The position numbers and the translations under genes were made by a program. Source: Planctomycetota bacterium (lineage in GTDB: Bacteria > Planctomycetota > UBA1135 > UBA2386). From it: DNA of 64,000 nucleotides. Below are positions 57,442-64,000 of this stretch, piece after piece. The stretch is taken from the NCBI GenBank assembly GCA_016235155.1, contig JACRLW010000053.1:78358-142357 (forward strand). Reading direction: 5' to 3'. Under the pieces are notes generated by a model that had not been told where the DNA came from, made no database searches, and worked only from the letters and a program-made list of their open reading frames with translations. The stretch's first letter is position 1; every line of letters begins with the position of its first letter.

Positions 57442-57661
57442 GCAGCAATGTGAACACCGGCGCCTGCGCTGCGCCAGCCATGAGCATGGAGCGTTGAGCG
57501 AGCGCTTGGCCACCCTGCGTGGAACTGCGATGGACTTGCGTCTGTGGGGTCCCGAAAGACCGGCGTGCCTAGGCGAATCGTGGTCGCGCTGCCTGCAGTA
57601 GCGCCGGCGCGCCGGCGCGCGTCGGGTGGACGCGCAAGCGTGGGACGTGCATCCTGCGGCC

Positions 57662-58777
57662 ATGCTGCATCGTGCGCTCCTGCTCGTGGCGCTGTCGCTG
57701 GCCTCGTCACTGACCGCGCAGGTCTTGTTCGAGGGGCTCGGCGCTGCGCTCGAACAGCCGCAGCTCGCGGTGCGCGACGACGGTGCGCTCGCGCTGGTAT
57801 TCGTGCAGGATCGACGCACGATCCGCATTGCAGTGCGACCGTCGGGCGGCGACTGGGGTGAGCCGAGAAAGGTGTGCGACGCACCCGACGTCGCCGTCGG
57901 CATGCGTCGCGGACCGCGCGTCGCCTGGTCGGGCGACGTGCTCGTCGTGTCGATGATCGAGTCGCGCTTCGATGCGAAGGCGCGCAAGGCGCTCGGCAGC
58001 GGCAACCTGCTCGTGCGACGCTCGGCCGACGGCGGCAGGCGCTGGTCGAAGCCGGTCCGCGTCAACGGGGAGGACGGCAGTGCGCGCGAAGGACTGCACG
58101 CGCTCGCGGCGCGCGGGGAGCACGTCGCGCTGATCTGGCTCGATCCGCGCGGCGACACGCCCGGAACCAGGTTGTTCGCGGCATGGTCGTCCGATGCCGG
58201 CCGGAGCTTCGGAGCGGACGCAGCCGTCCACGAGTCGCCGTCCGGTTCGATCTGCCCGTGCTGCCATCCATCGCTCTGCCTCGATCGCGATGGGCGCGCT
58301 GTCGCGCTGTGGCGCGACGCCATCGAGGGGGACCGCGACATGTTCGCCGGAGTCCTCGACCCGGCGGGGGAGCGGATCACGGATCCCGCGCCGGTGGGCG
58401 AGGGCCACTGGAAGCTCGACGCTTGCCCGATGGACGGCGGCGGTCTCGCGCTGGACTCCGACGATCGGCTGATGAGCGTCTGGCGGCGCGACGACTCCGT
58501 CTACTGGTCGCTCGGTCGTGGGAACGAGCGACGACTCGGGCGCGGCAGCAACCCGTCCGTCGCGGTCTCGGGAGCGACGGCGCTCGCCGTGTGGCAACGC
58601 GACGAGAGTCTGGTCGCCTCGCGCCTGCCGCTCGACGGCGCGTCCACGGCGCCCGAGGTCCGCGTGCTCGGCGCGGGTGGCTACGCATCGATCGCGGCTT
58701 CGTCCGGAGGGCGCTTCGTCGTCGTCGGCGAACGGCGTGACGGCGATCGGTGCACGCTCGTCGCCTTCGAACTCTGA
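57662..58777 (+). CDS. Secreted sialidase/BNR-fold protein of unknown function
   Basis: 371 residues with a signal peptide (MLHRALLLVALSLASSLTAQ). The body is a six-bladed sialidase-like propeller. An Asp-box-type motif is present in SADGGRRWSKPVRVNGEDG (about 131-149), and a degenerate one in SSDAGRSFGADAAV. Also seen are CPCCHPSLCLDRDGRAVALW, repeated DDGALALVFV and LDSDDRLMSVWRRD. A catalytic sialidase triad of Arg residues cannot be confirmed. A CPCC motif suggests a disulfide or metal site. An in-frame ATG lies upstream at 57626; ATG 57662 starts the signal peptide and has a CATCCT hexamer six bases in front. Divergent from the CAP gene. Confidence 0.65.
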   Translation: MLHRALLLVALSLASSLTAQVLFEGLGAALEQPQLAVRDDGALALVFVQDRRTIRIAVRPSGGDWGEPRKVCDAPDVAVGMRRGPRVAWSGDVLVVSMIESRFDAKARKALGSGNLLVRRSADGGRRWSKPVRVNGEDGSAREGLHALAARGEHVALIWLDPRGDTPGTRLFAAWSSDAGRSFGADAAVHESPSGSICPCCHPSLCLDRDGRAVALWRDAIEGDRDMFAGVLDPAGERITDPAPVGEGHWKLDACPMDGGGLALDSDDRLMSVWRRDDSVYWSLGRGNERRLGRGSNPSVAVSGATALAVWQRDESLVASRLPLDGASTAPEVRVLGAGGYASIAASSGGRFVVVGERRDGDRCTLVAFEL

Positions 58778-58833: not shown

Positions 58834-58850
58834 CCCGAGGAAGTCGGCCG
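58834..58850 (+). repeat. 17-bp direct repeat, left copy
   Basis: CCCGAGGAAGTCGGCCG, identical to 60607-60623. The two copies bracket a segment of about 1.76 kb with an ATPase gene and atypical base composition. They may be a target duplication, a recombination product, or the ends of a duplicated stretch. Confidence 0.6.
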
Positions 58851-58930
58851 GCGCCCGCCACCTCCTCGATTCCGACGGGACCATCCACCGCATGGACGAC
58901 AGGCACGTGATCACCAACGGCCTGCTTGGT
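58848..58930 (+). pseudogene. Fragment of an SMP-30/gluconolactonase gene
   Basis: The frame at 58859 reads HLLDSDGTIHRMDD then RHVITNGLLG. The intact lactonase at 61448-62320 has YRLDPDRTVHRMDD then GYVITNGP at the matching place (about residues 127-148). The similarity covers roughly 70 bp, with the same frame and gap-free, and is bounded by no start or stop of its own. It is a remnant of a second or duplicated SMP-30 gene, cut at its right side before the repeats at 58957. Confidence 0.65.
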
Positions 58931-58956
58931 CGGTGCAGATGTGCCTCGCCTCGATA

Positions 58957-58996
58957 GGCCAGACTTCCCGGAATCGAGCGGCCAGACTTCCCGGAA
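58957..58996 (+). repeat. Two tandem copies of a 17-bp motif, 23-bp period
   Basis: GGCCAGACTTCCCGGAA occurs at 58957-58973 and again at 58980-58996. Only two copies are present, with a 6-nt spacer. They lie 75 bp before the AT-richer stretch and the ATPase gene. They might be the end of a mobile element or a protein-binding site. Confidence 0.6.
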
Positions 58997-59070
58997 CCCA
59001 CCTCCGCGGGGACCTCGCAAGCGTGCCTGTTATTGCCCTAGAAAACGACTCGACTCAGGTCAAAAAACAA

Positions 59071-59076
59071 TAGTCT
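59071..59076 (+). promoter_or_regulatory. Candidate -10 box, leaderless start of the ATPase gene
   Basis: TAGTCT followed by seven bases and GTG 59084. It lies in the AT-richest stretch of the window (about 59030-59076), which includes CAAAAAACAA just before the box. There is no Shine-Dalgarno in front of the GTG. Confidence 0.4.
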
Positions 59077-59083
59077 TCCAGAC

Positions 59084-60466
59084 GTGTTCCGACTCGCCGA
59101 AGACCAGCTCGCCACCTGGGCGAGCCGACCCGACCGCCTGCCCTTGGTGCTGCGAGGTGCCCGCCAGACCGGCAAGTCCTGGCTGATCCAACACTTCGGC
59201 GAGCGCTTCGAGGACAACGTCGCCGTCGCCAACCTGGAGCGAGAGCCAGGACTCGCGGCCTGCTTCGCCTCGAACGACCCGGCCGCAGTCGTCGCCCTGC
59301 TGGAGGCCCGCCTCCGGCGCAGCATCGCCCCAGGCCGGAGCCTCTTGTTCCTCGATGAGATCCAAGCGGCACCCGAGCTCCTCGCGAAGCTGCGTTGGTT
59401 CGCCGAGGACCTGCCGGCGCTGCATGTCGCCGCGGCGGGTTCGCTGCTCGACTTCGCGCTCGCCGACCACAACTTCTCGATGCCCGTGGGCCGGATCACC
59501 TACGGGCATCTGGAGCCGATGACGTTTGCCGAGTTCCTGCTCGCGTGTGGCGAGGACCGTCTGTTGGCCGCCATTGCCGCCTGCACGCCGGCGGTCGGTG
59601 TGGCGGCGGCGCTGCATCCGCGTCTGGCAGAACTGGCGCGCACCTACGCCTTGGTCGGCGGCATGCCGGCCGCGGTCGCCGACTGGGCCGAGCACCGCTC
59701 CTTCGTCCGCATCGCCAACCTTCACCGGGACCTGCTGCAGACGATTCGCGACGACTTCGGCAAGTACCGTCGCGGAGTCGACACCGCTCGGGTTGCGAAG
59801 GTGTTCGCGGCCCTGCCGCGTCTGGTCGGGCGCAAGTTCCAGCCCTCCGCGATCGACCGCGAGGAGAAGAGCCGGTCGCTGAAGGACGTTTTCCGCCTGC
59901 TGTCCCTGGCCCGCATCGTGACCCCGGTTCGGCGTACGACTGCCAATGGCGTTCCGCTCGGGGCCGAGGTCGACGAGCGCTACCAGAAGGTCTGCCTCCT
60001 CGACACGGGGTTGTATGCCACCATGGTGGGTGTCGATGCAGCAGCGGTGACGAACCTCGGCGACCTGACGCTGGTCAACGAGGGGCAGCTCGCAGAGCAG
60101 CTGGTGGGGCAGGAGCTGCGCGCCAGCCGCCCCTTCAATCAGGAACCGGGCTTGTTAACGTGGGTCCGCGAGGCCCGGAACAGCAACGCCGAAGTGGACT
60201 ACGTCCTGCAGGTCGGCACGCGGGTCGTACCGGTCGACGTGAAGGCCGGCGCGACCGGCACCCTGCGCAGTCTGCACATGATGGTCTTGGAGAAGGGGCT
60301 CGACCTCGCGGTGCGCGTCAACTCCGAGCCGCTCTCGCTGAGCACGGTGACGACGTCGCTACCGGTCGGAGAGCAGCGCAGCTTCCGCTTGCTCTCGGTG
60401 CCGTTCTATCTGGTCGGCGAACTGCCGCGTCTGGTTCGGGAGCTCGACAGCAGCGGCGGTCGCTGA
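59084..60466 (+). CDS. AAA ATPase with C-terminal DUF4143
   Basis: 460 residues from GTG 59084. Walker A is GARQTGKS (25-32) and Walker B is LLFLDEIQ (87-94). DUF4143 follows, with HLEPMTFAEFLLACGEDRLL and, near the end, NAEVDYVLQVGTRVVPVDVK, a nuclease-like E-x-D-x-K-like strand (EVDY...VDVK). This architecture (AAA_14 plus DUF4143) is common in bacteria and archaea and is spread by horizontal transfer; its biological role is unsettled. There are no functional partners next to it. The surrounding AT-richer patch, the SMP-30 remnant and the bracketing 17-bp repeats suggest that it was inserted here. No transposase is present, so the mechanism is unknown. Confidence 0.9.
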   Translation: MFRLAEDQLATWASRPDRLPLVLRGARQTGKSWLIQHFGERFEDNVAVANLEREPGLAACFASNDPAAVVALLEARLRRSIAPGRSLLFLDEIQAAPELLAKLRWFAEDLPALHVAAAGSLLDFALADHNFSMPVGRITYGHLEPMTFAEFLLACGEDRLLAAIAACTPAVGVAAALHPRLAELARTYALVGGMPAAVADWAEHRSFVRIANLHRDLLQTIRDDFGKYRRGVDTARVAKVFAALPRLVGRKFQPSAIDREEKSRSLKDVFRLLSLARIVTPVRRTTANGVPLGAEVDERYQKVCLLDTGLYATMVGVDAAAVTNLGDLTLVNEGQLAEQLVGQELRASRPFNQEPGLLTWVREARNSNAEVDYVLQVGTRVVPVDVKAGATGTLRSLHMMVLEKGLDLAVRVNSEPLSLSTVTTSLPVGEQRSFRLLSVPFYLVGELPRLVRELDSSGGR

Positions 60467-60606
60467 TGCGCGCGGCGATCGTGATCCGCGATGCAGGCAG
60501 GACGGCACGTCGTTGCTCGACCCGGAAGCCGCCGACGAGGGCTTCGCGTGGCGGTGAGACGCTTCCCTCGTTGACATCAAGCGTCGATGGTTCTTGCGCG
60601 CGACGC

Positions 60607-60623
60607 CCCGAGGAAGTCGGCCG
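60607..60623 (+). repeat. 17-bp direct repeat, right copy
   Basis: Identical to 58834-58850. It lies 36 bp before the chosen ATG of the SDR gene and within the open frame that extends upstream from it. Confidence 0.6.
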
Positions 60624-60658
60624 CGATGTCGAGTATGAACACGCCACTCCGGCACACG

Positions 60659-61441
60659 ATGAGCTCCCCTCCGACCGATCCGACGGCGACCTACCCGAGC
60701 TTGCGGGGCCGCGCTGTTCTCGTCACCGGCGGCGGCTCCGGGATCGGCGCCGCGGTCGTCCGCGCGTTCGCGCGCCAGCACAGCAAGGTTGCGTTCCTCG
60801 ACATCGACGACGATGCGTCGAAGAAGCTCGTCGCGGAACTGGCCGGCAAGGACTGGCCGAGGCCTCTCCATGTGAACTGCGATCTCCAAGACATCGGTGC
60901 GCTGCGCGCCGCGATCGCTCAGGTCGAGGGTCGGCTCGGACCGATCGACGTGCTCGTCAACAACGCCGCGAGCGACGAGCGGCACGAGATCGACGCCGTC
61001 GAGCCCGCGTATTTCGACGACCGCATCGCGGTCAATCTGCGCCACTACTTCTTCGCGATCCAGGCCGTGCGCGCAGCGATGGCGAAGAACGGCGGCGGCT
61101 CGATCGTCAACCTCGGTTCGATCGTCTGGCGGCTGCCTTTGCCCGAAGTCGCGGTCTACGCCACGGCCAAGGCCGCGATCGCGGGGATGACGAAGATCCT
61201 GGCGGCCGAACTCGGTCCGCAGCGCATCCGGATCAACTGCGTCGAGCCGGGCTTCGTCGCCACCGAGCGCCAGAAGAAGCTGTGGCTGACGCCGGAGCTC
61301 GAGTCGCGGGTCCGCGCCGGACAGTGCCTACCGGACCTGATCGAACCCGACTCGATCGCCGACCTCGTGTTGTTCCTCGCCTCCGACGCCGGCCGGATGT
61401 GCACGCGCCAGACCTTCGTCGTCGACGGCGGCTGGACCTGA
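60659..61441 (+). CDS. Short-chain dehydrogenase/reductase (probable sugar 1-dehydrogenase)
   Basis: 260 residues. Cofactor motif TGGGSGIG (23-30), then FLDIDDDA (Asp48/Asp50 after beta-2 favour NAD over NADP). NNAAS is at 101-105. The active-site set is Ser154, Tyr167 and Lys171 (YATAK). The C-terminus RQTFVVDGGWT is the classical SDR end. It is followed by an SMP-30 lactonase and an IlvD/Edd dehydratase, the gene order of non-phosphorylating pentose/hexose oxidation, so aldose to lactone is the likely reaction. In-frame starts also exist at 60587, 60626 and 60635. ATG 60659 is preferred because homology begins soon after it; the upstream part may derive from the inserted segment. Confidence 0.8.
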   Translation: MSSPPTDPTATYPSLRGRAVLVTGGGSGIGAAVVRAFARQHSKVAFLDIDDDASKKLVAELAGKDWPRPLHVNCDLQDIGALRAAIAQVEGRLGPIDVLVNNAASDERHEIDAVEPAYFDDRIAVNLRHYFFAIQAVRAAMAKNGGGSIVNLGSIVWRLPLPEVAVYATAKAAIAGMTKILAAELGPQRIRINCVEPGFVATERQKKLWLTPELESRVRAGQCLPDLIEPDSIADLVLFLASDAGRMCTRQTFVVDGGWT

Positions 61442-61447
61442 GCCGAC

Positions 61448-62320
61448 ATGAGCGAGACCCGATGCGTCTGGAAGGCGGAAGCGAAGCTCGGCGAAGGGCC
61501 GGTGTGGCACGCGGGTGAGCGCGCCCTCTACTTCGTCGACATCGAGCGACCGGCGATCCTCCGCTTCGCGATCGAGGACGGTCGCACCGACGAGTACCTC
61601 ATGCCCGAGAAGATCGGTTGCATCGCGTTCCGCGAGCGGGGCGGGCTGGTCGCCGGTTGCAAGTCGGGCTTCGCGTTCGTCGACCTCGAACGCCGGGAAA
61701 CGACGCCGATCGCCGATCCCGAGGCGGACCTGCCGGGCAACCGCTTCAACGACGGCAAGTGCGACGCGCGCGGCCGGTTCTGGGCCGGAACGATGGACGC
61801 TGCGTGCCGGCAGCCGACCGGCGTCCTCTACCGCCTCGATCCCGACCGGACCGTCCACCGCATGGACGACGGCTACGTGATCACCAATGGCCCGGCCTGG
61901 TCACCCGACGGCAGGACGCTCTACCACAACGACACGATGCAGCGCACGGTGTTCGCGTTCGACTGCGATCCAAGCACCGGCTCCATCGACAACAAGCGGG
62001 TGTTCGTGCGCATCCCCGATGCGGACGGCTACCCCGATGGAATGAGCGTCGACAGCGACGGCGGCCTCTGGCTCGCGCACTGGGGCGGTTCTCGCGTGAC
62101 GCGTTTCACGCCAAAGGGTCGCGTTGATCGGGTCGTGCGCCTGCCCGCGTCCCAGGTGACGAGCTGCACGTTCGGCGGATCCGAGCTGCGCACGCTGTAC
62201 ATCACGACGGCCCGCATCGGCCTCGACGCCGCGACCCTCCTCGACGAGCCGCTCGCCGGTGGCCTGTTCGCGGTCGACGTCGACATACCCGGGCTGCCGG
62301 CCCACCGCTTCGGAGGATGA
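61448..62320 (+). CDS. SMP-30/gluconolactonase family lactonase
   Basis: 290 residues, the usual length. The metal ligand Glu16 is in LGEGPVWHA; Asn and Asp ligands are predicted in VITNGPAWSPDG and in YPDGMSVDSDGGLWLAHWGG. NRFNDGKCDARGRFWAGTMD is the diagnostic middle motif. Members hydrolyse sugar lactones with a divalent metal. Six bp after the SDR stop and overlapping the next gene by 4 bp (ATGA), it forms one operon with both. A truncated relative of this gene lies at 58848-58930. Confidence 0.9.
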   Translation: MSETRCVWKAEAKLGEGPVWHAGERALYFVDIERPAILRFAIEDGRTDEYLMPEKIGCIAFRERGGLVAGCKSGFAFVDLERRETTPIADPEADLPGNRFNDGKCDARGRFWAGTMDAACRQPTGVLYRLDPDRTVHRMDDGYVITNGPAWSPDGRTLYHNDTMQRTVFAFDCDPSTGSIDNKRVFVRIPDADGYPDGMSVDSDGGLWLAHWGGSRVTRFTPKGRVDRVVRLPASQVTSCTFGGSELRTLYITTARIGLDAATLLDEPLAGGLFAVDVDIPGLPAHRFGG

Positions 62321-64000
62321 CGACGATGAACGAGTCAGGTCGCCCGCACCGCTCGACCGCGTGGTTCGGCGGCAAGGACAAGGACGGCTTCATCCACCGC
62401 AGTTGGATGCGCAACCAGGGCCTGCCGCCGCATTTGTTCGACGGCCGGCCGGTGATCGGCATCTGCAACACCTTCTCCGAGCTGACGCCGTGCAATGCGC
62501 ACTTCCGTGAGCTGGCCGAGCGCGTCAAGCGCGGCGTGTACGAAGCCGGCGGGCTGCCCCTCGAGTTCCCGGTGTTCTCGCTCGGCGAGACCAACCTGCG
62601 CCCCACCGCGATGCTGTTCCGCAACCTCGCGAGCATGGACGTGGAGGAGTCGATCCGCGGCAACCCGATCGACGGCGTCGTGCTCCTGTGCGGTTGCGAC
62701 AAGACGACGCCCGCGTTGCTCATGGGTGCCGCGAGTTGCGACCTGCCCACTGCCGTCGTCTCCGGCGGACCGATGCTGAACGGCAAGTTCCGCGGCGGCG
62801 ACATCGGTTCGGGCACGCACGTGTGGAAGATCGACGCGGAGGTGCGGGCCGGCAAGATGTCGATCGCCGAGTTCATGGACGCGGAGGCGTGCATGTCGCG
62901 ATCGGTCGGCCACTGCATGTCGATGGGCACCGCGTCGACAATGGCTTGCGTCGTCGAGTCACTCGGCATGGCGTTGCCCGGCAACGCCGCGATCCCCGCG
63001 GTCGACGCGCGCCGCAACGTGCTCGCCCACATGACCGGCCGGCGCATCGTCGAGATGGTGCGCGAGGACCTGCGCATGTCGAAGGTCGTCACCCGGGACT
63101 CGCTCGCCAATGCGGTGCGCGCGGTTGCGGCGATCGGTGGCTCGACCAATGCCGTGCTCCACGTCCTCGCTCTCGCCGGTCGACTGGAGATCCCGTTCAC
63201 GCTGAACGACTGGGACGAGATCGGCGCGAACCTGCCCACCCTCGTCGACCTGATGCCGGCCGGTCGCTTCCTGATGGAGGACTTCTATTACGCCGGCGGT
63301 CTGCCCCCCGTGCTCCGCGTGCTCGACGAGCACGGGTTGCTCGACGGCGACGCGCGGACGATCTCCGGCACGACGCTTCGACAGCAGAATGCCGGCGCCG
63401 AGATCTTCGACGACCGCGTGATCCGACCCTTCGACCAACCTCTGCACGAGAACGGCGGGATCGCGGTCCTGCGCGGCAACCTCGCCCCGCGCGGGGCGGT
63501 GATCAAGCCGGCGGCCGCCACCGCCGAACTGATGCAGCACCGCGGCCGCGCCGTCGTGTTCGACAGCATCGAGCAGTACCGCGAACGGATCGCCGATCCC
63601 GCGCTCGCGGTCGAGCCGTCGTCGGTCCTGGTTCTGCGCGGTTGTGGACCGAAGGGCTACCCGGGGATGCCGGAGCTCGGCAACTTCGGGTTGCCGCAGA
63701 AGCTGCTCGAGCAGGGCGTGCGCGACATGGTGCGCATCTCCGATGCGCGTATGAGCGGCACCGCGTACGGCACGGCGGTGTTGCACGTCGCCCCGGAGTC
63801 AGCCGACGGCGGCACGCTCGCGCTCGTGCGCGACGGCGACGAAATCGAACTCGACGTCGCCGGCCGCCGCCTCCAACTCTTTGTCGACGACCGCGAACTC
63901 GCGCGGCGCCGCGCGCTCTGGCAGCCGCCGCCGCCACGGATGGCGAGCGGTTACCAGCGCCTCTACCACGATCACGTGCAGCAGGCGGACTCCGGCTGCG
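62317..64000 (+). CDS. IlvD/Edd-family dehydratase, L-arabinonate dehydratase type (3' end beyond the window)
   Basis: 561 codons visible, still open at the edge; homologues are about 580 residues, so little is missing. Start ATG 62317 overlaps the lactonase stop (ATGA). With this start the cluster cysteines fall at Cys59 (SELTPCNAH), Cys127 (LCGCDKTTP) and Cys200 (RSVGHCMSMG), with Lys129 beside the magnesium site and Ser480 (ISDARMSGTAYG). These are the positions I recall for L-arabinonate dehydratase of Rhizobium, which carries a [2Fe-2S] cluster; dihydroxyacid dehydratase differs at some of these points. The reaction is a sugar acid losing water to a 2-keto-3-deoxy acid. The third step after SDR and lactonase fits. 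Substrate (arabinonate, xylonate, fuconate or other) is not fixed by sequence alone. Confidence 0.9.
   Translation, partial: MTTMNESGRPHRSTAWFGGKDKDGFIHRSWMRNQGLPPHLFDGRPVIGICNTFSELTPCNAHFRELAERVKRGVYEAGGLPLEFPVFSLGETNLRPTAMLFRNLASMDVEESIRGNPIDGVVLLCGCDKTTPALLMGAASCDLPTAVVSGGPMLNGKFRGGDIGSGTHVWKIDAEVRAGKMSIAEFMDAEACMSRSVGHCMSMGTASTMACVVESLGMALPGNAAIPAVDARRNVLAHMTGRRIVEMVREDLRMSKVVTRDSLANAVRAVAAIGGSTNAVLHVLALAGRLEIPFTLNDWDEIGANLPTLVDLMPAGRFLMEDFYYAGGLPPVLRVLDEHGLLDGDARTISGTTLRQQNAGAEIFDDRVIRPFDQPLHENGGIAVLRGNLAPRGAVIKPAAATAELMQHRGRAVVFDSIEQYRERIADPALAVEPSSVLVLRGCGPKGYPGMPELGNFGLPQKLLEQGVRDMVRISDARMSGTAYGTAVLHVAPESADGGTLALVRDGDEIELDVAGRRLQLFVDDRELARRRALWQPPPPRMASGYQRLYHDHVQQADSGC

What the first reader, a model, noticed from the sequence alone, without database searches (positions are those of the whole stretch)
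58834..60623. Atypical ATPase segment between two identical 17-bp direct repeats
CCCGAGGAAGTCGGCCG occurs at 58834 and 60607. Between them lie an SMP-30 gene fragment, a tandem repeat, the AT-richest stretch of the window, and an AAA/DUF4143 ATPase. The left repeat touches the SMP-30 fragment, and the right one lies just before the sugar-oxidation operon. This looks like an insertion next to, or a rearrangement of, the operon, without a transposase. DUF4143 ATPases are frequently transferred.
Basis: partly seen in the sequence, partly recalled or inferred. Interest (0 to 1): 0.5.

Follow-up and report, generated by a model that had tools for sequence, protein, structure and literature searches.

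The report
Defence-type ATPase beside insertion-sequence scar
The segment is a scar made of a gene fragment and the end of a lost insertion sequence next to an acquired candidate phage-defence ATPase; the 17-base repeats look incidental, but relatives of the ATPase carry an apparently undescribed array of 33-base-spaced repeats just before the gene.

Summary
The 17-mer occurs at 58834 and 60607 and nowhere else in the genome, but a pair this close is expected about 0.3-0.5 times per window by chance. No integrase, tRNA or relative supports it as an element boundary. Between the copies lie: (1) an 84-nt decayed copy of the downstream SMP-30 gene; (2) two 23-bp repeats at 58951-59001, the terminal repeats of an IS21-family element (other copies in this genome, four in a genus mate, one directly after an IstB tail in another genome), with the element body gone; (3) a gene of normal composition for an AAA+ / winged-helix / PD-(D/E)XK protein, a strong match to PADLOC's candidate defence family PDC-S01. 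The AT-richest stretch is the promoter-proximal element of this ATPase. It is shared with 68-75% identical relatives at other loci, one labelled Deltaproteobacteria. Following it up showed that PDC-S01 genes in general have upstream direct repeats at exactly 33-bp pitch: 29 of 68 non-redundant homologs, against at most 1 at lags outside 32-34, with flat controls. Repeat sequence follows protein clade. The window's copy has only one palindrome-like site. Most likely role: binding site for autoregulation.

The parts
57662..58777 (+). Upstream neighbour: BNR-repeat-like protein gene
   Evidence: PF13088 E=1.2e-6, slightly below its curated cut-off; ORF 57626-58777
58834..58850 (+). Left copy of the 17-bp direct repeat (probably incidental)
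58839..58922 (+). Decayed fragment of the SMP-30/gluconolactonase gene (copy of 61809-61892); up to about 58932 against relatives' genes
   Evidence: 83% identity over 84 nt; differences 9/3/2 at codon positions 1/2/3, so no third-position bias; 67-69% to genes in G026/G008
58951..59001 (+). Terminal repeats (2 x 23 bp, GGCCAGACTTCCCGGAA core) of a lost IS21-family element; element interior to the left, outer edge at about 59000-59001
59028..59077 (.). AT-richest 50 bp of the window (38% GC)
59058..59083 (+). Promoter-proximal cis-element that is shared with ATPase relatives at other loci (AAAATACNATAGTATTC-like; here palindrome-like AAAACAATAGTCTT at 59064-59077, centred 13 nt before the start codon)
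   Evidence: L054 DNA alignment starts at 59058; upstream comparison
59084..60466 (+). PDC-S01-type ATPase, 460 aa: Walker A (G25ARQTGKS), Walker B (LFLDE to E92), predicted winged helix (about 234-305), PD-(D/E)XK site (E370, D372, D385-x-K387)
   Evidence: Pfam, PADLOC PDC-S01 E=1.4e-136, alignment, AlphaFold2 pLDDT 91, Foldseek
60607..60623 (+). Right copy of the 17-bp direct repeat, 5' region of the SDR gene
60629..61441 (+). SDR dehydrogenase gene, first gene of the sugar-oxidation operon (start codon uncertain; ORF opens at 60587)
   Evidence: PF13561 E=1e-55; best NCBIfam match D-xylose 1-dehydrogenase, below its cut-off
61448..62320 (+). Intact SMP-30/gluconolactonase gene
   Evidence: PF08450 E=3e-93
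62326..64000 (+). IlvD/EDD-family sugar-acid dehydratase gene (runs to the window edge, which is the contig end)
   Evidence: PF00920 E=4e-108; NF004784; contig length

Best explanation
The segment is a composite scar plus an acquired gene. An IS21-family element once lay between a partial copy of the SMP-30 gene and the DNA to its right; the element body has been deleted, leaving one set of terminal repeats (58951-59001) joined to an 84-nt SMP-30 fragment. To the right sits a horizontally acquired PDC-S01-type gene (AAA+ ATPase, winged helix, PD-(D/E)XK nuclease-like domain), which came with its own short AT-rich cis-element (59058-59083). I infer that the ATPase binds this element through its winged helix and so controls its own expression: a single-gene system that carries its own operator. 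In many sampled relatives the operator is an array of sites at 33-bp pitch (about three helical turns), which suits an oligomeric AAA+ protein that binds cooperatively, much as archaeal Orc1/Cdc6 binds repeated boxes beside its own gene. Loss of repression on invasion followed by nuclease attack on DNA is a further, untested step. Shown: anatomy, IS-end identity, family, fold model, the shared cis-element and the family-wide 33-bp array. Inferred: the order of events, self-binding and function. The 17-bp repeats play no role.
For: IS21 end: same repeats at three other places in the genome; in genus mate G001 three contigs share a near-identical 79-bp interior that ends at these repeats and continues into three different flanks; in G189 the repeats directly follow an IstB tail (PF01695 E=2.7e-7; 2.3e-15). 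Acquired ATPase: 75% identical in L054, 69% in another genus, 9 of 61 relatives have any match, unrelated neighbours. PDC-S01: PADLOC E=1.4e-136. Cis-element: DNA shared with L054 starts 26 nt before the gene. Array: 29 of 68 homologs reach 12/14 matches at lag 33, 7 at lag 32, at most 1 at other lags, z=9.4; far-upstream, downstream, shuffled and SDR/SMP-30 controls flat. Motif follows the protein: one genome (G017) has three paralogs with three different motifs; pairs of 48-90% protein identity share 12-mers at -70..0 in 17-28% of cases and in none at -170..-100; a blind scan of 392 genomes for the paired clade-A motif hit three loci, all directly upstream of a PDC-S01 gene. Fold model pLDDT 91; PDB matches include DNA-bound Orc1/Cdc6.
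Against: The window's own copy and its two nearest relatives show no 33-bp array (best 8 of 14), and the window's palindrome has lost symmetry at both third arm positions. 19 of 68 homologs score 8 or less at lag 33. Binding by the ATPase itself is not shown; a host factor is not fully excluded. No TSD or second IS end was found, so the order of events is inferred. Defence activity of PDC-S01 is unproven. No sigma-70-like promoter was found near the element.
Confidence: 0.62

Rival explanations
1. One reading: the segment is one mobile insertion bounded by the 17-bp repeats (att site or target-site duplication), with the recombinase lost or supplied in trans.
For: Exact 17-mers found only here in the genome; they enclose the fragment, the IS end and the ATPase.
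Against: 0.3-0.5 such close pairs expected by chance per window; left copy overlaps the SMP-30 fragment; an IS edge lies inside; no integrase or tRNA; ATPase homology ends do not coincide with the repeats.
Confidence: 0.08
2. The upstream element of the ATPase (and the 33-bp arrays of its relatives) is the end or target site of a mobile ATPase cassette rather than an operator.
For: The element travels with the gene between phyla and loci; PDC-S01 is often on plasmids and viral contigs.
Against: No copy of the motif at the downstream flank in either orientation above control; arrays sit at a fixed register to the start codon (about -22, -55, -88 in clade A), as expected of regulation.
Confidence: 0.15
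3. The upstream sites are bound by a host regulator, not by the ATPase.
For: The sites lie in the promoter region; some lone copies look like ordinary palindromic operators.
Against: Motif type follows protein clade across genera and phyla, and three paralogs in one genome have three different motifs.
Confidence: 0.17

Closest known systems
PDC-S01 candidate phage-defence ATPase (PADLOC; AAA_14 plus DUF4143)
   Same: Whole-length profile match, E=1.4e-136; ATPase fused to a PD-(D/E)XK domain, as described in PMC12988326
   Different: No published mechanism or upstream array found in the searched library; this copy has Asp in place of the usual Glu at residue 385 and only one upstream site
IS21 family insertion sequences (IstA/IstB, multiple terminal repeats)
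   Same: Tandem terminal repeats of the type that follows IstB in G189 and G001
   Different: Only one end left; no istA or istB in the segment
Archaeal Orc1/Cdc6 initiators with ORB repeats beside their gene
   Same: AAA+ plus winged-helix fold (Foldseek 2qby E=9.7e-6); repeated sites next to the gene in relatives of the ATPase
   Different: Low TM-score (0.30); extra PD-(D/E)XK domain; no evidence of origin function; likeness to ORB arrangement is from general knowledge
Archaeal ATPases SSO1545 and PABY2304 (PDB 2fna, 2qen)
   Same: Best fold matches (E=1.8e-7 and 7e-8)
   Different: 14-16% identity, shorter chains

Membership tests
PDC-S01 / AAA_14-DUF4143 | Full-length match to the family profile | tested here: met
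   PDLC04788 residues 2-453, E=1.4e-136; Pfam above cut-off
PDC-S01 / AAA_14-DUF4143 | Walker A/B and PD-(D/E)XK residues | tested here: met
   G30, K31, D91, E92, E370, K387 invariant in 32 homologs; residue 385 is D here, E in at least 90%
PDC-S01 / AAA_14-DUF4143 | 33-bp-pitch upstream repeats (feature proposed here, not part of the published definition) | tested here: not met
   8/14 at lag 33 in the window copy; 29 of 68 homologs meet 12/14
PDC-S01 / AAA_14-DUF4143 | Protection against phage | not testable with these tools
   Validation still pending in the literature (PMC12988326)
IS21 family element | Multiple terminal repeats like those beside IstB | tested here: met
IS21 family element | istA and istB genes present | tested here: not met
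   No such ORF in 58834-60623: a remnant, not an element
IS21 family element | Target-site duplication and second end | tested here: inconclusive
   Only one end visible; inner side deleted
Integrative element bounded by att repeats | Integrase and attachment repeats at its edges | tested here: not met
   No integrase ORF, no tRNA; 17-mers near chance level
Orc1/Cdc6 initiators | Sequence-level family membership | tested here: not met
   Profile search of PDB gives no Orc1/Cdc6 hit; fold likeness only

The most novel reading that the evidence does not exclude
PDC-S01 (AAA_14-DUF4143), one of the most widespread unvalidated defence candidates, is a self-contained regulatory unit: each gene carries a clade-specific array of binding sites at exactly 33-bp pitch directly before its start codon, on which its own AAA+/winged-helix protein assembles, and this array is moved with the gene between phyla.
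Probability: 0.45. Interest if true: 0.8.

Novelty: new variant of a known kind. Interest (0 to 1): 0.52.

Why it matters
The locus itself is an ordinary insertion-sequence scar next to an acquired gene. It led to a feature that I could not find in the searched library: regularly phased repeats before PDC-S01 genes. PDC-S01 is reported as the fourth most common defence-type system in prokaryotes and has no known mechanism (PMC12988326). A fixed 33-bp pitch, with repeat sequences that track the protein, gives a concrete DNA ligand to test for a family with no sequence-detectable relative of known structure.

Tried and rejected
Direct repeats as att sites or TSD: rejected as the main reading. 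ATPase as compositionally foreign: rejected. Empty-site comparison: not possible; the genus mate G001 has no close copy of the SDR, SMP-30 or BNR genes, and the nearest operons (G026, G008) have SMP-30 plus IlvD with other genes upstream and no SDR or ATPase. Viral-contig scans for the motifs: 45 contigs, none next to an ATPase. The one paired-motif viral hit (L196) is a 51-bp repeat inside a coding region. Window operator motif (AAAATACNATAGTATTC) in viral contigs: 37 scattered hits, uninformative. Structure from three sequences failed (pLDDT 33); 19 sequences gave pLDDT 91. A weak tblastn match of the IstB tail to 58844-59002 (E=6e-4) comes from the repeats read in frame plus the SMP-30 stretch, so I do not count it. 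Motif as transposon end: no downstream partner.

Full report
Observation. The 17-mer occurs nowhere else in the 5.3 Mb assembly with 0-1 mismatch, but close exact pairs of this length are expected 0.3-0.5 times per window under Markov models, and the window holds 22 exact direct pairs of 17 or more at all distances. The left copy overlaps the SMP-30 homology by 12 nt.

SMP-30 fragment. 58839-58922 matches 61809-61892 of the intact gene at 83%, higher than its match to the same gene in two other genomes of the family (67-69%). So it is a copy made in this lineage or a close one. The 14 differences fall 9/3/2 on codon positions 1/2/3, which is no pattern of purifying selection.

IS21 remnant. 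The tandem repeat (GGCCAGACTTCCCGGAA, 23-bp period) has relatives in the same genome at C38 (26/27 identical), C126 and C101. A pattern scan of 199 genomes found the motif in four, with four sites in the genus mate G001. Three of these sit 79-80 bp from contig ends, share a near-identical interior and continue into three different flanks, which is how a multi-copy mobile element end looks in an assembly. In G189 the repeats follow directly after an IstB C-terminus (PF01695 E=2.7e-7; 2.3e-15). In G001:C192 a truncated IstB is followed by the same kind of repeats. The interior of the element therefore lay to the left, and its outer edge is at about 59000-59001. No istA or istB remains.

ATPase. 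The 460-aa protein matches AAA_14 and DUF4143 and PADLOC PDC-S01 at E=1.4e-136. Its GC and GC3 are ordinary for the window. Nine of 61 genomes (own included) have any match, one other at 69%. A 75% copy is in a contig labelled Deltaproteobacteria, at a locus with other neighbours. DNA similarity to that copy runs from 59058 to 60435, that is, the gene and 26 nt before it. A model from 19 sequences has pLDDT 91. Its closest solved folds are archaeal ATPases 2qen and 2fna, then DNA-bound Cdc6/Orc1, ORC, RuvB, a plant NLR and MuB. The secondary structure fits AAA+, then a winged helix (about 234-305), then PD-(D/E)XK with E370, D372, D385 and K387; the domain reading is mine.

Cis-element. The AT-richest stretch of the window is the region just before the ATPase start. 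The nearest relatives have AAAATACNATAGTATTC at the same distance from the start; the window has the weakened form AAAACAATAGTCTT. Comparison of upstream regions across the family showed other, clade-specific palindromes, such as AACAACGCGTTGTT centred 20-23 nt before the start and repeated at exact 33-bp steps. A systematic autocorrelation over 68 homologs of less than 85% identity, from genomes, plasmids and viral contigs, gives 29 with at least 12 of 14 matches at lag 33 and 7 at lag 32; other lags have at most 1 (z=9.4). Regions further upstream, downstream regions, shuffled sequences and the upstream regions of SDR and SMP-30 genes show nothing. Some arrays have six units (L242, L280). 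The upstream 50 bp are AT-rich family-wide (37% GC against 54% further up). A blind search for the paired clade-A motif in 392 genomes hit only three loci, each directly before a PDC-S01 gene found independently. The motif is not shared with the downstream flank. The window copy, L054 and L057 do not have the array.

Mechanism. Because the repeat sequence follows the protein clade, and one genome (G017) carries three paralogs with three different motifs, the binding factor most likely is the ATPase itself. With an AAA+ plus winged-helix fold, the simplest model is cooperative binding to phased sites over its own promoter. What releases it and what the nuclease cuts are open. Published surveys list PDC-S01 as very common and unvalidated (PMC12988326 and PMC13356809). 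Searches of the open literature for DUF4143, PF13173 and related terms returned no description of the array; subscription papers are not covered.

Verdict. The locus is a scar plus an acquired gene, and the 17-bp repeats are probably incidental. The family-wide 33-bp array is the result worth following, with the caveat that the window's own copy carries only a single, weakened site.

Noticed in passing
L242:1270-1500, L280, L246:1335-1470, L190 (upstream of PDC-S01 homologs): Arrays of 4-6 repeats at exact 33-bp pitch before PDC-S01 genes, with repeat cores that differ by clade.
   Followed up: yes
G017: C148, C64, C119 (L057, L058, L049): One genome carries three PDC-S01 paralogs, each with a different upstream motif.
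   Followed up: yes
L132 (G001:C192): An IS21-type istB appears interrupted by an ISL3-like transposase gene (by eye), with terminal repeats further downstream.
   Followed up: partly
L128, L129 (G026, G008): The SMP-30 plus IlvD pair is conserved in two other genomes without the SDR gene, so the SDR may be a later addition in this lineage.
   Followed up: partly
G000:C126:33466-33525: A second degenerate IS21-end remnant with some likeness to the window's flank beyond the end (CTCCGCGG..GACCTCGC).
   Followed up: no
window:59064-59077: Both differences from the relatives' palindrome (AATAC..GTATT) fall on the symmetrical third arm position.
   Followed up: no
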